A stretch of DNA of 13,698 nt from a bacterium (GTDB taxonomy: Bacteria > DYJV01 > JALVYZ01), in the NCBI GenBank assembly GCA_027037705.1, contig JALVYZ010000137.1:1-13698 (forward strand), given 5' to 3'. Both the position numbers and the translations under genes were made by a program. Below are positions 3 to 11,036 of this stretch, piece by piece. The stretch's first letter is position 1. Every line of letters begins with the position of its first letter. The notes under the pieces are model-generated. The model did no database searches. It saw nothing but the letters and a program-made list of their open reading frames with translations, and was not told the origin of the DNA.

Positions 3-1220
3 GATTATCCAGTAACAGGATTTAAAGGAAGATCAAAACCAGTATTTGATTTAGATCCAATTCATATTTTACAATTAATTTCAGAAATGAATGAAGGATT
101 GGAATATCCTGGTTTAAAAGGACCAGTAAAAATTAAACCAACAAATTTCTTTGCTGGAGCAGCTGCTTCTCCTTTTAAACAACTTGAATCAGAGCAAGTT
201 TTACAATATTACAAATTAAAGAAAAAACTTGATGCTGGTGCTCAATTTATAATTCCTCAATTAGGATATGATGCAAGAAAATTTCATGAATTATATCTTA
301 TTGTTAGAAAAATTTTCAAATCAGATGTTCCATTGATAGGTAATGTATATATTTTACCTTATGGTGCTGCAAGATTGATGAATAAAAATCAAATTCCTGG
401 ATGTGTTGTAACAGATAAACTTGTACAAATTTTAGATGAAGAAAGAAAAGCTGAGGATAAAGGCAAACAGGCAAGATTGTTAAGAGCTGCAAAAATGTAT
501 GCATTTTTTAAAGGAATGGGATACAACGGAGTTCATATAGGTGGTCATGGAATAAAAATTGATGATGTTTTATGGATTATTGATAAAGGTGAGGAATTAG
601 CCCCTAACTGGCTTGAATATGTTAAAGAATTTGAATTTCCAATGCCAGATGGTTTTTACTTTTTTGAAAAAGATGAAGAAACAGGCCTTAATAAAGAAGA
701 TGCACTCACTCCACAAAATGCTCCTGGACATAGTCCATTAAGTTATAGATTTGCAAGATTTATGCATGATGTAATGTTTGAACCAAAGGGATTTTTATTT
801 AAACCAATGCAAAAGCTTTGTGCTGCAATAGATGGCAAAAAATCAGGAGAAATTTTCAAAAAAATTGAGCATCTTATTAAAGTTGCTAACTTTGAATGTA
901 TGGATTGTGGTGACTGTGCATTAATGGATGTCGCATTTGTTTGTCCAATGAGTCAGTGTCCAAAAAATCAAAGAAATGGACCATGTGGTGGAAGCTACCA
1001 AGGTTGGTGTGAAGTTTATCCAAATGAAAAGAAATGTGTATGGGTAAGAGCATATGATAGATTAAAAGTTTATAATGAACAGGATACAATACAAGAAAAT
1101 GTTGTTCCACCTGTAAATTGGGATCTCTTCCATACTTCTTCATGGATAAACTTCTTCTTAGGAAGAGACCATGTTTCTAAGAGAATGGGAATAAAGCCTC
1201 CTGAAAAGAAAAAAGAATAG
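3..1220 (+). CDS. Methylenetetrahydrofolate reductase with fused MetV-type C-terminal domain (5' end outside window)
   Basis: The open frame continues upstream of the first ATG at 87 to the window edge (visible residues begin DYPVTGFKG), so the N-terminus is missing; 405 residues are visible. The first two thirds look like the later part of a MetF TIM barrel, with strand-like segments such as QFIIPQLGYD and VPLIGNVYILP. The last third matches the MTHFR C-terminal (MetV-like) domain, with the cysteine cluster C-x2-C-x2-C at about visible residues 299-305 followed by VCPMSQCPKNQRNGPCGG. In acetogens MetV is usually a separate metal/Fe-S-binding partner of MetF; here the two are in one chain. 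The expected reaction is reduction of methylene-THF to methyl-THF, in methionine supply or the methyl branch of the Wood-Ljungdahl pathway; the family and the fusion are seen, the pathway is inferred. A terminator follows directly, so this is the last gene of its transcript. Confidence 0.88.
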   Translation, partial: DYPVTGFKGRSKPVFDLDPIHILQLISEMNEGLEYPGLKGPVKIKPTNFFAGAAASPFKQLESEQVLQYYKLKKKLDAGAQFIIPQLGYDARKFHELYLIVRKIFKSDVPLIGNVYILPYGAARLMNKNQIPGCVVTDKLVQILDEERKAEDKGKQARLLRAAKMYAFFKGMGYNGVHIGGHGIKIDDVLWIIDKGEELAPNWLEYVKEFEFPMPDGFYFFEKDEETGLNKEDALTPQNAPGHSPLSYRFARFMHDVMFEPKGFLFKPMQKLCAAIDGKKSGEIFKKIEHLIKVANFECMDCGDCALMDVAFVCPMSQCPKNQRNGPCGGSYQGWCEVYPNEKKCVWVRAYDRLKVYNEQDTIQENVVPPVNWDLFHTSSWINFFLGRDHVSKRMGIKPPEKKKE

Positions 1221-1282: not shown

Positions 1283-1480
1283 ATGGCAATAAAAAAGGAA
1301 TTACTTGAAATATTAGCTTGCCCACAATGCAAAGGAGATTTATTTTTAACAGAAAGTGAAGATGGATTAGTTTGTAAAAAATGTAAATTGCTTTATGAAA
1401 TTAAAGATGATATTCCAATAATGTTAATAGATGAAGCAAAACCTTATAATGAATCAATAAAGCTTAAAGAAAATGTTTAA
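1283..1480 (+). CDS. Trm112/UPF0434 family zinc-ribbon protein (YcaR-like)
   Basis: This 65-residue protein carries two CxxC knuckles, CPQC (about residues 14-17) and CKKC (about 32-35), followed by the LLYEIKDDIPIML segment typical of the UPF0434/Trm112 family. Trm112-type proteins can bind zinc and act as small partners of methyltransferases; in Proteobacteria the related ycaR sits between lpxK and kdsB, in lipopolysaccharide loci. That context recurs here, since the next gene is a lipid A-type acyltransferase whose ATG overlaps this stop by 8 bases. An excellent ribosome site (AAGGGAGG, 1268-1275) lies 7 bases before the ATG. Length and cysteine spacing are normal. Family assignment is firm; the exact partner or role is unknown. 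Confidence 0.88.
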   Translation: MAIKKELLEILACPQCKGDLFLTESEDGLVCKKCKLLYEIKDDIPIMLIDEAKPYNESIKLKENV

Positions 1481-2284
1481 ATTAATAGATCTATTTTCAG
1501 ATATCATAGGTTCATTTCTTTATTATCTACTCAATAACAGAAGAAAAGTTGCTTTCTACAATTTAAGTATTATTTTACCTCAAATTTCTGAACAAGAAAA
1601 AAAAAAATTGTAAAGCTTAGTTTTATTAATTTAATTAAAAACATTTTAGAATTTTTCTATTTTTTAACTCTTCCTGAAAATAAAATTAAAGAACTTATTA
1701 TAATTGAAAACCCTGAATTAATTGAAGAAAAATTAAATATTGGAAAAGGTGTAATAGTTCTTCTTGGACATTTTGGAAATTGGGAGATACTATCATTTAT
1801 TGGAAAAATAAAAAAATGGGATGCAGTAACTATAGGAAAAGACTTTAAACCAAAATTTTTAAGCAATTTATTTTTTAAATTAAGAGAAAAAGCAGGAATA
1901 AAAGTATTCTTATATAAAAATGCAGTTATACACTTATATAAAGCATTAAAAAATAATAAAATAGTAGCTCTTTTAGTTGACCAGAGGACAAGAAAGAAAG
2001 GCTCTGTAAAAATAGATTTTTTTGGACATGAAATTTATGCAACTTCTGCACCTGCTTTTTTGCATAAAAAACTAAAATCTCCTGTCCTCTTTGCATACCC
2101 TGAAAGATTAAAGAACCATAAACATTCAGTTGAGTATTTTGAAATTAATCTAACTGATGATATTGGTGAATCAACACAAATAATTCAAGATAAAATTAAA
2201 GAATTGATTTTAAAAAATCCTTATAATTACTTCTGGTTACATTCAAAATTTAAAAGCAGAAGAAGAGTTGTAAAAAATATTTAA
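1473..2284 (+). CDS. LpxL/HtrB-like lipid A biosynthesis acyltransferase, frame broken at an A11 run
   Basis: Reading from the ATG at 1473 gives 46 residues ending KKKL and a TAA at 1611-1613. Moving to the -1 frame inside the A run at 1597-1607 gives one continuous product of about 270 residues ending at 2284. The joined product reads as the family: RRKVAFYNLSIILPQISEQE near the start, the acyltransferase H-x4-E motif GHFGNWE (about H100 and E105), DQRTRKKG (about 170-177), and FWLHSKFKSRRR near the end. This family transfers acyl chains to lipid A or related lipids at the inner membrane. At 270 residues it is slightly shorter than typical LpxL, mostly at the N-terminal membrane segment. Its start overlaps the Trm112 stop, implying translational coupling. 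The break could be a real mutation, an assembly or sequencing error, or productive slippage. Confidence 0.8.
1597..1607 (+). other. Run of 11 A at the acyltransferase frameshift (candidate slippery site)
   Basis: Eleven consecutive A follow a G at 1596. In frame 0 they read GAA AAA AAA AAA TTG TAA, hitting a stop two codons later. With 12 A, or a -1 ribosomal slip, the reading continues as ATT GTA AAG into the rest of the acyltransferase. Runs of nine or more A are known substrates for RNA polymerase slippage and for -1 ribosomal frameshifting in other bacteria; whether either happens here is not shown by the sequence. Confidence 0.7.
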
Positions 2285-2322: not shown

Positions 2323-4449
2323 ATGGAAAGTGTAAGAGTCAGAATTAATGATATAATTGATAAACTTCTTGAAAGATATTCAGAAGAAGAAATTAAATTA
2401 GTTAATAAAGCATATATTTACTCAGCAAAAGTACATAAAGGCCAAACAAGATTATCTGGAGAACCATACCTTGTACATCCCATAGCTGTTGCTTATATCT
2501 TAACAGAAATGAATATGGATATCCCAACAATAGTAACAGGGATATTACACGATGTAGTTGAAGATACTCATGCTACAATTGAAGATATTGAAAAAAATTT
2601 TGGAAAAGAGATAGCTACTTTAGTGGATGGTGTAACAAAAATTAGTAAACTCCAGTTTAAATCTGCACAGGATAAAATGGCAGAGAATTTTAGAAAACTA
2701 ATTGTAGCTTCAACAAATGATATTAGAGTTATTATTGTAAAATTAGCAGATAGACTTCATAATATGAGAACTCTGCAGTATATGCCTCGTGAAAAACAGA
2801 TTAGGATTGCCCAGGAAACACTTGAAATATATGCACCACTTGCCAATAGATTAGGTATTTCATGGATGAAAGCTGAACTTGAAGATTTATCTTTAAAATA
2901 TTTAAAGCCAAAAGTTTATGAAGCAATAGAAAAAAGAATAAAAGAAATTAAAGAGGAAAAAGATAAATATATAAATGAAGTAATAAAAATATTAGAAAGA
3001 AATTTAAAATATTACAACATAAATGGAAAAATTTCAGGTAGATTAAAGCATATCTATAGCATTTATAAAAAAATCCAAAAAAAAAATGTAGATATAAGCC
3101 AGATTTACGATATATTAGCTTTTAGAATAATTGTTAATACTGTTCAAGAATGCTATCAAGTTCTTGGTATAATTCATTCAATTTGGAAACCTGTTCCTGG
3201 AAGATTTAAAGATTTTATTGCAATGCCTAAAAGTAATATGTATCAATCTCTTCATACAACTGTAATAGGTCCATTTGGTGAATTTATTGAAATTCAAATA
3301 AGAACAGAAGAGATGCATAGAATTGCAGAGCAAGGGATTGCTGCACACTGGTTGTATAAAGAAGGAAAATCTGTTGATGATGAAAGTTTTAAAACTTTCA
3401 ACTGGCTAAGAGAAGTAATGGAGTTAAAGGACGATATAAAGGATGCTAATCAATTCTTTATGAGTATTAAAAATGAAATTCTTTCTGAATCTGTTTATGT
3501 TTTTACTCCAAATGGCGATGTAATTGAACTTCCAGAAGGCTCAACTCCAGTTGACTTTGCTTATGCAATTCATTCTGAAGTAGGTAATAGATGCATTGGA
3601 GCAAAAGTAAATGGAGTAATGGTTCCATTGAAATATAAATTAAAAAATGGAGATAGAGTTGAAATTTTAACATCTAAAAATGCAAAACCAAATAAAGATT
3701 GGTTAAAATTTGTAAAAACATCTAAAGCAAGAAATAAAATTAGAAGTTACATTAAAAAAGAGAATTTTGATACAAATGTAGAAATTGGAAAAAAACTTTT
3801 AGAGAAAGAATTAGATAAAAATAAAGTTAGTTTAAATGAAGAATTAAAACAAAAGTTGGAAGAAGTAGCTAAAGCTTTTAATTTTATAAATACAGATTAT
3901 CTTTATGAAGCTATTGGTAGCGGAAAAATTACAGTTAATCAAGTTTTAAATAAACTTATCCCCCAAGAAAAACAGATAGTAAAAGGGAAAAAAACAAAGG
4001 AACCAATTAAAAAATCTTCTCAACAGGCAATTATAATTGATGGAGAAACAAATTATGCATTAAATTACGCTAAATGTTGCAATCCTCTTCCTGGTGAGGA
4101 TATAATTGGATATATTACTATTGGCAGAGGTATTACAATTCATTCTAAAAATTGTCCCAATATTCCTAAATTAGATCCAGAAAGAATCATTGATGCAAAA
4201 TGGAATATTGATAAAGAAGAAGCACGGGTAATAAGGTTGAAAATCTCTGGTTTTGATAGAAAAGGACTTCTAATGGAAATGAGTAATGCTATTACAAGTG
4301 TAGGGTTAAACATTGTAAAGGTTAATATTAATGCAAAAGAAGGTAGATTTAAATGTTATTTTGATATAGAAATATCAAATAATGAACAACTTCAAAAGGT
4401 CATATCAAAATTAAATGAGATTGAAGGAATAACTTCAATAGAAAAATAA
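2323..4449 (+). CDS. rel: Bifunctional (p)ppGpp synthetase/hydrolase, RelA/SpoT family
   Basis: The 708-residue protein has the full long-RSH layout. The HD hydrolase domain shows VHP (H52), HDVVED (H76, D77, E80, D81) and LADRLHN (D144), so hydrolysis of ppGpp looks intact. The synthetase domain shows HIYSIYKK, YDILAFR (D263), GRFKDFIAMPKSNMYQSLHT (293-312) and EIQIRT (E323), so synthesis also looks intact. A TGS domain (about 389-450), a conserved-cysteine domain (KCCNPLPGED near 584-592, H607, C611) and a C-terminal ACT domain (about 635-705) follow; these bind the ribosome and regulate. It should be the cell's stringent-response alarmone switch, acting in the cytosol. The only Shine-Dalgarno-like sequence, AAGGA (2305-2309), is 13 bases from the ATG and overlaps the putative promoter. 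A run of 10 A at 3077-3086 stays in frame. Confidence 0.95.
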   Translation: MESVRVRINDIIDKLLERYSEEEIKLVNKAYIYSAKVHKGQTRLSGEPYLVHPIAVAYILTEMNMDIPTIVTGILHDVVEDTHATIEDIEKNFGKEIATLVDGVTKISKLQFKSAQDKMAENFRKLIVASTNDIRVIIVKLADRLHNMRTLQYMPREKQIRIAQETLEIYAPLANRLGISWMKAELEDLSLKYLKPKVYEAIEKRIKEIKEEKDKYINEVIKILERNLKYYNINGKISGRLKHIYSIYKKIQKKNVDISQIYDILAFRIIVNTVQECYQVLGIIHSIWKPVPGRFKDFIAMPKSNMYQSLHTTVIGPFGEFIEIQIRTEEMHRIAEQGIAAHWLYKEGKSVDDESFKTFNWLREVMELKDDIKDANQFFMSIKNEILSESVYVFTPNGDVIELPEGSTPVDFAYAIHSEVGNRCIGAKVNGVMVPLKYKLKNGDRVEILTSKNAKPNKDWLKFVKTSKARNKIRSYIKKENFDTNVEIGKKLLEKELDKNKVSLNEELKQKLEEVAKAFNFINTDYLYEAIGSGKITVNQVLNKLIPQEKQIVKGKKTKEPIKKSSQQAIIIDGETNYALNYAKCCNPLPGEDIIGYITIGRGITIHSKNCPNIPKLDPERIIDAKWNIDKEEARVIRLKISGFDRKGLLMEMSNAITSVGLNIVKVNINAKEGRFKCYFDIEISNNEQLQKVISKLNEIEGITSIEK

Positions 4450-6303: not shown

Positions 6304-6330
6304 AATCCCGGGCTTTCCCGGGACTTTATT
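6302..6330. terminator. Bidirectional terminator between convergent genes
   Basis: A 7-bp stem TCCCGGG / CCCGGGA (6306-6312 and 6317-6323) with a CTTT loop lies directly after the synthetase stop. On the plus strand it is followed by CTTTATTT. On the minus strand it is followed by a T-rich tract (complement of 6302-6305 and beyond). It overlaps or abuts the stops of both convergent genes, so one hairpin can end both transcripts. Confidence 0.85.
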
Positions 6331-7489
6331 TAAAAATTGTTATTTCTTCATCTAAAACTTTATCAATATCTATATTAGATTTTCCTTCAATGATTAAATC
6401 AACAAGATATTTTAATTTTTTAGATTGTAATTCAAGAAAATTTTTATCTATTTCTGGTGGTGTAGGAATCATATTTTGAAAAGGAATGCCTTTTTTCTTA
6501 GCTTCTTCTTTAGCTTTATTAACTTTGTCTATCCAGTCTTTATGAAACTTTAAATAAAAATCTCTAACAGCCTGTTTATTAAAATGGATAAATTTATTTT
6601 TATAATATTTAGTAATTCTAACAGAATCTGTATCTATTGTATCTACTAAATAAAGTTCATTATTTGAAAAAGCAAATTCTAACTTTAGGTCCCATAAAGT
6701 TAATTCTAACCTTTCAAAAAATTTAAAAACATATACAGCACAAAAAAGGCATGTATAATATAATTTTTCAAAAATCTTTTCATCTACTCCTGCTATATTG
6801 CATGCTTCTTGATATGTAACAGCTCTATCCTGTGGCTCATACTTTGTGGTAAAATCTATTATTGGTCTATCAAAAATCTGCCATTCATATAGAACTTCAA
6901 CTCCAAATTCTTTTAAGATTTTCTTTTTACCCTCTTCATCTGATTTTTTATACCTTTTAAATACTGAACTTTGCGGAGTGATTCCAAATCTTATAATATT
7001 TTCTAATGGAATTACATAATTATCAGCTAAATGATATTTATGATAATTCCATAAAGCCTGATTATTTAAATTAAGCAAAATTGGTTTTAAAATATTAAAT
7101 TTTTTTACAATTATTAAATTTGATAATTCTTGAGGAAATGAATCTTTGTAAACCTCTCCTGTTTTATTATCTACTATCCCTATATGATGAGTTTTAACGC
7201 CATTAAGAATAATTTCTTTTAAAATATTATCTGGGATTAAATTTTTTTCTTTAATATATTTCTCAATTTCATCAAAAAACTCTCTTTTAGCTAATCCAGT
7301 ATAAATCTTGTGTCTAATAGCTGTTCTAAAAATGTCATTATCAGGAATATAAAATATAGTACCAACATCAAAAACACTTCCACCTGTGGTTGTTTTGCAT
7401 AGAATTTTATCATCATCAAAAAAATATAGATACTGGACAGAACCTTCATAATCAGGTTTTTTATTTAAAATATTTAAGTCAATTTTCAT
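6326..7489 (-). CDS. purC: SAICAR synthetase-like protein (PurC family, long divergent form)
   Basis: I chose the ATG at 7489, giving 387 residues; GGGAGG (7494-7499 on the plus map) sits just before it. A TTG four codons upstream would place the ribosome site inside the gene. PurC-family motifs in order: EGSVQYLYFFDDDK near the N-terminus, GVKTHHIG (about 97-104), PLENIIRFGI..SSVFKRY (161-180), LWDLKLEFAF (265-274), VDTIDTDSVRI (282-292) and KQAVRDF (305-311). PurC joins aspartate to CAIR using ATP in purine synthesis. Typical bacterial PurC is about 235-260 residues, so this one is long, with a larger N-terminal half and a lysine-rich C-terminal tail. Several motif positions differ from the canonical ones (for example SS for GS, and DT where DE is common). 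It follows purB by 15 bases. The context supports PurC strongly; sequence alone supports it moderately. Confidence 0.78.
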   Translation of the reverse strand: MKIDLNILNKKPDYEGSVQYLYFFDDDKILCKTTTGGSVFDVGTIFYIPDNDIFRTAIRHKIYTGLAKREFFDEIEKYIKEKNLIPDNILKEIILNGVKTHHIGIVDNKTGEVYKDSFPQELSNLIIVKKFNILKPILLNLNNQALWNYHKYHLADNYVIPLENIIRFGITPQSSVFKRYKKSDEEGKKKILKEFGVEVLYEWQIFDRPIIDFTTKYEPQDRAVTYQEACNIAGVDEKIFEKLYYTCLFCAVYVFKFFERLELTLWDLKLEFAFSNNELYLVDTIDTDSVRITKYYKNKFIHFNKQAVRDFYLKFHKDWIDKVNKAKEEAKKKGIPFQNMIPTPPEIDKNFLELQSKKLKYLVDLIIEGKSNIDIDKVLDEEITIFK

Positions 7490-7504
7490 AAATCCTCCCA
7501 AATT

Positions 7505-9375: not shown

Positions 9376-9924
9376 TTAATTTAAAATCTTAATATCATCC
9401 TTATTTTTCTCAGAATCATTTATAATTTTTTTAAATTCTTTTACTGGATTAAAATCTTCTAACTCATCTTCATCATCAAAAGAAGAATATTTTTTTATAG
9501 TTTCTATTGACCATTTCTTTTTTCCATCTTCAAAAAAATCAAATTTTACTTTTTGAATTAGTACAATTCCGGATGCAATTATTTTATAATAATCTTTTAA
9601 TAAAATTCTTGCTTCCTCAAAATTATTAACAGAAATAACTGCTCCTAAAGAAAAAAAAGCGAAAAGGATTCCTTTTTCAGAAAGATTAGTTATATTAAAA
9701 CTCTCGAATATTTTTTCAAAGAAATAATCAACAAATACACTTTTAGAAAATTCAAATTCTTCACTAAAATATATTCCTCCTGCATACCAGGCAAGATAAG
9801 CTTTATCTTTTATTTCTTCTATGTTATATTTCTCAATATTTTTAATTATAATTGGATAGCATAATTCAAAAGAATTAAGAAGTTTATATAATTCTTTTGT
9901 TTTTTCTTCAAAATTTAAAATCAT
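9376..9924 (-). CDS. Uncharacterised 182-residue protein, first gene of the efp-purB-purC operon
   Basis: I do not recognise this family. The product looks cytosolic: no signal peptide, no clear membrane helix, one cysteine (C22). It appears largely alpha-helical, with two aromatic-rich blocks (AYLAWYAGGIYFSEEF near 42-57 and KSVFVDYFFEKIFESF near 61-76), a hydrophobic GILFAFFSLGAVIS segment (about 85-98) and a charged, acidic tail (SSFDDEDELEDFNP, then lysine-rich). Composition matches its neighbours, so it does not look recently acquired. It is a real gene: a good ribosome site (AGGGGAA) precedes the ATG, a near-consensus promoter lies upstream, and the efp ribosome site starts right after its stop. 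The operon position suggests a translation- or growth-related role, which is guilt by association only. Confidence 0.75.
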   Translation of the reverse strand: MILNFEEKTKELYKLLNSFELCYPIIIKNIEKYNIEEIKDKAYLAWYAGGIYFSEEFEFSKSVFVDYFFEKIFESFNITNLSEKGILFAFFSLGAVISVNNFEEARILLKDYYKIIASGIVLIQKVKFDFFEDGKKKWSIETIKKYSSFDDEDELEDFNPVKEFKKIINDSEKNKDDIKILN

Positions 9925-9986: not shown

Positions 9987-11036
9987 TTATTTTAACTTTT
10001 TAATTATTTCTTCTGGAATTTTATTAAATGGCAAAACCTTATCAACAACTCCGTTTTCAATTGCTACTCTTGGCATACCAAAAATAACTGAAGTAGACTC
10101 ATCTTGAGCTATCACATACGCTCCTTTTTCTTTTAATATTTTAAGACCTTCTCTACCATCTGAGCCCATTCCACTCATAATTACTGCTATGACTCTACCA
10201 TCTAAACTTTTAGCAGCTGTTTCAAAAAGGATATCAATTTGGGGATGGTATAATGCATCAACTGGCTCTTTTGTAATTTTTAAAAAAATTTTAGAACTAT
10301 CCTTCATAATTTTAATGTGATACCCACCTTTTCCAATAAAAATTTTTCCACTTTCTAAAATATCTCCATCTTCTGCTTCTACAACATTTAATTGACAAAT
10401 TTTATCTAATCTGTCAGCCATTGCCTTTGTAAAACCATAAGGCATGTGTTGAGCTATTACTATAGGCAAAGGAAAATTGGCTGGAAATAAAGGTAACATT
10501 TCTTGTAAAATTTGAGGCCCGCCTGTTGAGATTCCAATTAATACTGCTCTATATTTTAATTTGTTAGAAACATTAATGTTGGATAATCGTACTGGAAAAT
10601 CAAATTTTTTATTTAAATTTTTTAATTTGTTAAATTTAATATCTTTTACAGCTCTAATTTTATTTAATAATTTAAATTCTATCCTATCCAGTTCCTCAAA
10701 ATTATTTATATGAATAATATCAATAGCTCCCAAATCTAAAGCTTTTAAAGATATAAAAGATAAATCTGAATTATTTTGAAAATCCATACTAATTATAAAA
10801 CATGGGATAGAAGTGTATATTTTAAAAAATCTCTTTAAAATTTGAATCCCTTTATCTTTTATAATATCTAAATCAATCAATACAACATCAGGCTTTTTTT
10901 CTATTAAATTTAAAATTTTTTCATCATATTTATAAAGCCCAATAATATCTATATCTGGATATTTTTCCAGAATAGTTCTTAATGTTATTCTAAGCATAGC
11001 ATTATTTACTATAATAAGGACATTAATCTTATTCAT
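9987..11036 (-). CDS. cheB: CheB-type protein-glutamate methylesterase with degenerate receiver domain
   Basis: The 349-residue protein has an N-terminal receiver-like domain (about 1-115), a linker, and a C-terminal methylesterase domain. The esterase triad is intact: S170 in GISTGGP, H197 in AQHMPYG, D293 in SGMGSDG. CheB removes methyl groups from (and deamidates) chemoreceptor glutamates. The receiver is unusual: the acidic pair that binds magnesium is Asn-Asn (IIVNNAM, 11-12), the conserved lysine near the end of the domain is replaced (AIDIIHI, H109), and only an aspartate at the phosphorylation position (D55 in VLIDLDI) remains. Control by CheA phosphotransfer is therefore doubtful. 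Its ATG overlaps the cheR stop by one base. No clear terminator follows, so some transcript may run into the next operon. Confidence 0.93.
   Translation of the reverse strand: MNKINVLIIVNNAMLRITLRTILEKYPDIDIIGLYKYDEKILNLIEKKPDVVLIDLDIIKDKGIQILKRFFKIYTSIPCFIISMDFQNNSDLSFISLKALDLGAIDIIHINNFEELDRIEFKLLNKIRAVKDIKFNKLKNLNKKFDFPVRLSNINVSNKLKYRAVLIGISTGGPQILQEMLPLFPANFPLPIVIAQHMPYGFTKAMADRLDKICQLNVVEAEDGDILESGKIFIGKGGYHIKIMKDSSKIFLKITKEPVDALYHPQIDILFETAAKSLDGRVIAVIMSGMGSDGREGLKILKEKGAYVIAQDESTSVIFGMPRVAIENGVVDKVLPFNKIPEEIIKKLK

What the first reader, a model, noticed from the sequence alone, without database searches (positions are those of the whole stretch)
1473..2284. Lipid A-type acyltransferase split by an A11 run: decay, error or slippage
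The upstream 46 codons and the downstream frame both read as LpxL/HtrB family and join exactly at an A11 tract (1597-1607); one extra A restores a 270-residue protein with the H-x4-E active site intact. The frame-0 stop comes two codons after the run, the arrangement seen where polymerase or -1 ribosomal slippage is used. Everything downstream still looks under selection. Slippage would set the enzyme level and perhaps vary surface lipid.
Basis: partly seen in the sequence, partly recalled or inferred. Interest (0 to 1): 0.6.

Follow-up and report, generated by a model that had tools for sequence, protein, structure and literature searches.

The report
Lipid A acyltransferase broken at A-run
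In this uncultured low-GC bacterium, the only gene for a lipid A-type acyltransferase is cut into two reading frames by a run of eleven A's; relatives have an uninterrupted gene without the run, so this is most likely a recent, leaky one-base frameshift (or a base-call error) rather than an evolved regulatory device.

Summary
A 46-codon frame (1473-1613) and a 226-codon frame (1604-2284) match adjacent parts of Pfam Lip_A_acyltrans (positions 32-75 and 74-294) and meet at A11 (1597-1607). It is the only copy in the genome, which keeps lpxC, lpxK and a kdtA-type gene.

The programmed reading is not supported. The only phylum relative held has the same gene order, an uninterrupted 292-codon gene and no A-run. 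Of 107 homologues, 105 are open across the junction and two are cut by contig ends; none has a run above A8.

The break stands out within the genome. All 14 other gene-interior A10/T10 tracts are in frame, except one in a chlD-like chelatase gene. That gene is a known -1 frameshift family and shares its A10 with the relative. A coding-potential census of 625 kb found only prfB, chlD, lpxL and one apparent pseudogene. Intact ORFs contain no A>=11 (about 23 expected), so a miscalled in-frame A12 would itself be unusual.

Best reading: a recent, genome-private one-base change in an intact gene, probably leaky through slippage. A consensus error is the main rival. Reads and cDNA would decide.

The parts
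1473..1613 (+). Upstream piece of the acyltransferase gene (46 codons plus stop); its ATG overlaps the stop of the Trm112-like gene
   Evidence: Pfam PF03279 positions 32-75
1597..1607 (+). A11 tract where the two frames meet; the only A>=11 in a gene interior in this genome
1604..2284 (+). Downstream piece, catalytic domain with HFGNWE (H-x4-E), 226 codons plus stop, in the frame reached by a -1 shift
   Evidence: Pfam PF03279 positions 74-294, E 1.8e-34; coding log-odds
1283..1480 (+). Trm112/YcaR-like zinc-ribbon protein gene, overlapping the acyltransferase start; same order in relative G001
3..1220 (+). Methylenetetrahydrofolate reductase-related gene (5' end cut by the window); conserved neighbour upstream

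Best explanation
The gene is an ordinary single-copy lipid A-type (LpxL/HtrB superfamily) acyltransferase, translationally coupled to an upstream Trm112-like gene. In this genome, or in the population assembled into it, it lost its frame through one recent length change that left an uninterrupted A11. Shown: the two frames, the intact remainder, the absence of the break and the run in relatives, and the absence of any other A>=11 inside genes. Inferred: the A11 is real DNA. Also inferred: because RNA polymerase (and to a lesser degree the ribosome) slips on such runs, mostly by adding one base in transcripts, some full-length enzyme is still made, so the allele is leaky rather than null. It is not a selected regulatory site.
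For: Two pieces cover consecutive parts of one Pfam model. It is the only copy in the genome and lpxC, lpxK and a kdtA-type gene are present. Relative G001 (= DYJV01000016.1) has an intact 292-codon gene in the same order with no run at the junction. 105 of 107 homologues are open across the junction and the other two are cut by contig ends. The downstream frame has no stop; about 6% of random substitutions there would make one, so neutral decay beyond roughly 7% divergence is unlikely. Fourteen gene-interior A10/T10 tracts elsewhere are in frame, so homopolymer calls are generally good. The chlD A10 frame change shared with G001 suggests long A-runs are misread in this lineage. Transcript insertions rise exponentially with run length, mostly by one base (PMC5574713). 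Singleton frameshifts are usually indel mutations or errors (PMC3711429).
Against: No reads, coverage or second strain were available, so the A11 could be a base-call error. The nearest genome is only in the same order (47% protein identity), so conservation at genus or family level is untested. Leakiness is not measured; in Buchnera no transcription error was found that restored a frame (PMC5574713).
Confidence: 0.58

Rival explanations
1. Consensus or assembly error: the living genome has an uninterrupted gene and the run length was miscalled in this draft metagenome assembly (496 contigs).
For: Long homopolymers are the commonest place for such errors; the gene is otherwise intact; homologues are uninterrupted; the assembly is a fragmented draft.
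Against: All 14 other gene-interior A10/T10 tracts are in frame, apart from the chlD-family site. An in-frame run of A12 would itself be exceptional, since intact ORFs in 625 kb hold no A>=11 where about 23 are expected.
Confidence: 0.22
2. Maintained slippage: the lineage keeps the A11 and makes full-length enzyme from a fraction of transcripts or ribosomes, setting a low enzyme level.
For: A11 is of slippage length; 9A in Thermus dnaX gives about 50% alternative product (PMC1088944). The same genome has a conserved A10 -1 frame change in chlD. The frame-0 stop is right after the run. The remainder is intact.
Against: Run and break are absent in G001 and in 105 usable homologues. There is no downstream RNA structure beyond chance (z 0.8 and 1.2) and no visible Shine-Dalgarno-like stimulator upstream. 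No conservation can be shown.
Confidence: 0.12
3. Phase variation: replication slippage at the A11 switches the gene off and on in the population, as for meningococcal lpxL1; the assembly caught the off state.
For: Homopolymer near the 5' end of a surface-lipid gene; 71% of natural lpxL1 mutations in meningococci are homopolymer frameshifts (PMC2667671).
Against: No second allele is held; homologues have no run; no other gene-interior A-tract frameshift, apart from the chlD-family site, was found in the genome, so there is no sign of a wider set of such loci.
Confidence: 0.08

Closest known systems
Frameshifts in poly(A) tracts of Blochmannia/Buchnera genes, e.g. B. vafer visC with A11 (PMC3017870)
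   Same: AT-rich genome; one indel in a long A tract of an otherwise intact gene; slippage may partly rescue it; single genome
   Different: Here the genome is about 2 Mb, not a reduced symbiont genome, and the event is solitary; no expression data
Neisseria meningitidis lpxL1 homopolymer frameshift mutants (PMC2667671)
   Same: Lipid A acyltransferase superfamily gene inactivated by a one-base change in a poly-A tract
   Different: There the tract is A5-A7 with many strains and lipid A mass spectra; here one draft genome, A11, and no phenotype
Magnesium/cobalt chelatase chlD -1 frameshifting (PMC9227772, PMC5009743, PMC3711429)
   Same: Same -1 direction at an A-run in the same genome
   Different: chlD's A10 and frame change are shared with the relative, whereas the acyltransferase site is private to this genome
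Thermus thermophilus dnaX transcriptional slippage at 9A (described in PMC1088944)
   Same: A-run long enough for RNA polymerase slippage
   Different: dnaX makes two useful products; the 46-residue product here lacks the catalytic domain

Membership tests
Lipid A biosynthesis acyltransferase family (PF03279, LpxL/HtrB superfamily) | Match to the Pfam model over its length | tested here: met
   Downstream piece 119.8 bits (cut-off 22.3), positions 74-294; upstream piece 19.2 bits, below cut-off alone, positions 32-75
Lipid A biosynthesis acyltransferase family (PF03279, LpxL/HtrB superfamily) | H-x4-E active-site motif | tested here: met
   GHFGNWE in the downstream piece, aligned with the same motif in G001
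Lipid A biosynthesis acyltransferase family (PF03279, LpxL/HtrB superfamily) | Lipid A as the substrate (as opposed to other lipids) | tested here: inconclusive
   All NCBIfam equivalog scores are far below cut-off; LpxC, LpxK and KdtA-type genes are present; the best solved relative is LpxM-type 5kn7
Gene with programmed frameshift (ribosomal or transcriptional) | Frame change and slippery site conserved in relatives | tested here: not met
   G001 and 105 homologues are uninterrupted; no run above A8 at the junction
Gene with programmed frameshift (ribosomal or transcriptional) | Slippage-prone sequence at the frame change | tested here: met
   A11, with the frame-0 stop as second codon after it
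Gene with programmed frameshift (ribosomal or transcriptional) | Stimulatory structure downstream (optional feature) | tested here: not met
   Folds no better than shuffles, z 0.78 and 1.19
Gene with programmed frameshift (ribosomal or transcriptional) | Full-length product or edited transcripts | not testable with these tools
   No RNA or protein data
Phase-variable gene by slipped-strand mispairing | Different run lengths among cells or strains | not testable with these tools
   One genome, one copy

The most novel reading that the evidence does not exclude
In this poorly sampled low-GC phylum, misreading of long A-runs is a general feature of gene expression, used in chlD and, in this species, also to keep a frameshifted single-copy lipid A acyltransferase working at reduced level.
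Probability: 0.12. Interest if true: 0.45.

Novelty: new member of a known kind. Interest (0 to 1): 0.2.

Why it matters
If the A11 is real, it adds one more AT-rich, non-symbiont-sized genome in which a poly-A frameshift sits in an otherwise intact gene, and it can be checked beside an internal positive control (chlD A10) in the same cells. Otherwise it is a caution: the gene would be annotated as two fragments or a pseudogene and the organism wrongly scored as lacking late lipid A acylation.

Tried and rejected
Looked for closer relatives: the genome search by phylum holds only G000 and G001; a protein-pattern scan of genome contigs found none; an alignment scan found G001 itself plus distant homologues; viral contigs gave none. 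Asked whether the split is two genes: no ATG, GTG or TTG lies in the second frame for 450 nt past the junction, so rejected, apart from a possible rare ATT reinitiation, which I consider unlikely. Asked for ribosomal stimulators: no structure beyond chance. Asked whether the assembly is error-prone in general: the census says no. Most raw census hits (138) were ordinary gene overlaps and were filtered by the lack of a nearby start codon.

Full report
What is there. The A11 lies at 1597-1607. From the ATG at 1473, which overlaps the stop of a Trm112/YcaR-like gene, 46 codons are read before a stop at 1611-1613. The frame one base back is then open for 226 codons to 2284. Pfam's Lip_A_acyltrans model covers the first piece at positions 32-75 and the second at 74-294, so the two are consecutive parts of one protein of about 270 residues. 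The catalytic H-x4-E motif is present as HFGNWE. None of 20,000 shuffles of the downstream segment was free of stops.

Where it is. The window is contig C137 of a 2.05-Mb draft genome in 496 contigs, estimated 92.8% complete. There is only one copy of the gene. LpxC, LpxK and a KdtA-type gene are each present once, so the early lipid A pathway is there. Substrate specificity is not proved: no NCBIfam equivalog reaches its cut-off. The nearest solved protein by sequence is an LpxM-type acyltransferase, 5kn7.

Relatives. Only one other genome of the phylum is held: G001, same order. Its sequence at this locus is identical to record DYJV01000016.1, labelled as a 'Candidatus Methylomirabilis' MAG. 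It has the same order MTHFR-related, Trm112-like, acyltransferase, and an uninterrupted 292-codon gene, 47% identical. At the junction it reads CAAGAAAAGAGAGAGGAGATTGTC, without a long run. Among 107 homologues in other genomes, 105 stay open for at least 35 codons upstream of the junction. The two that do not are cut by a contig end. The longest A-run at the junction is 8. The break is therefore private to this genome as far as can be seen.

Is the assembly generally unreliable? All A10 hits of the genome were listed. Among runs of A10 or T10 well inside an open frame, 14 keep the frame; the two exceptions are this gene and one on C59. The C59 gene is a chlD-like protein: an AAA+ ChlI-type half and a VWA half in the -1 frame. 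G001 has the same A10 at the same place with the same frame change. Magnesium chelatase chlD is a documented -1 frameshift family (PMC9227772, PMC5009743, PMC3711429), so it serves as an internal positive control. A home-made frameshift scan of 81 stretches totalling 625,635 bases left four breaks with no nearby start codon. They are this gene, chlD, prfB at its classical +1 site (AGGAGTTATCTTTGA), and an apparent pseudogene of a substrate-binding protein. Finding the two known programmed sites shows the scan works, and the short list shows that frame errors are rare. The sample was enriched in contigs that hold A9 runs.

Long runs are avoided. In 533 intact ORFs the coding-strand counts are 219 of A8, 60 of A9, 17 of A10 and none of A11 or more. 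Resampling synonymous codons predicts 255, 88, 36 and 23. Extrapolating the observed decline instead would give about six of A11 or more (my arithmetic). This matches published avoidance of slippage-prone runs in AT-rich genomes (PMC1088944). It has two consequences. A true in-frame A12 here would itself be exceptional, which weakens the simple undercall. And A11 is probably misread often enough to be costly, which makes leaky expression plausible.

How it most likely works. The gene probably carried an interrupted A-rich stretch, as in G001, and a small deletion or run change produced an uninterrupted A11 out of frame (inference). Most transcripts should give a 46-residue peptide without the catalytic domain. 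RNA polymerase slippage, which mostly adds one base in long A-runs (PMC5574713), would let a fraction encode the whole enzyme. No rate can be given for this organism. Published values range from about 50% alternative product at 9A in Thermus dnaX (cited in PMC1088944) to no observed frame restoration in Buchnera (PMC5574713). RNA folding around the site is no better than shuffles, so there is no sign of a dedicated ribosomal signal. The chlD sites also lack structure in the 80 nt downstream, so absence of structure alone does not exclude slippage.

Age. About 6.2% of single substitutions in the downstream frame would create a stop, so drift of more than roughly 7% without selection should have left a stop with about 95% probability. 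The break is recent, false, or rescued. The data cannot separate these, and no reads were available.

Comparison. The closest parallels are frameshifted poly-A genes of Blochmannia, including an A11 in visC (PMC3017870), and meningococcal lpxL1 mutants at homopolymers (PMC2667671). In the classification of PMC3711429 a non-clustered frameshift like this one counts as indel mutation or sequencing error. I file it as a new member of a known kind, of low interest unless reads and cDNA show that the run is real and corrected.

Noticed in passing
L033 (G000 contig C59, about 10068-10077, minus strand); L226 in G001: chlD-like chelatase gene split at an A10 tract into ChlI-type and VWA halves in the -1 frame, with the same A10 and split in the relative: a likely programmed frameshift conserved in this phylum.
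   Followed up: partly
L146 9669 (G000 contig C5): prfB (release factor 2) with the classical +1 programmed frameshift site.
   Followed up: partly
L208 about 11018, minus strand (G000 contig C199): Periplasmic binding-protein-like (BtuF-like, by eye) gene with a frame break near an A8 and further stops: an apparent pseudogene.
   Followed up: partly
L064 (G000 contig C465) 1-123, 5231-5357, 5581-5790: Short near-identical repeats at and near the contig ends, one starting at an A12/A10 run; possible repeat-bounded contig or assembly tangle.
   Followed up: no
window 3077-3086: An A10 tract lies in frame inside the relA/spoT gene, a useful control for slippage tests.
   Followed up: no
window 6326-7501, minus strand: A 391-residue SAICAR synthetase-related protein, far below the purC equivalog cut-off and longer than usual purC.
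   Followed up: no
window 9376-9924, minus strand: A 182-residue protein with no Pfam or NCBIfam match.
   Followed up: no
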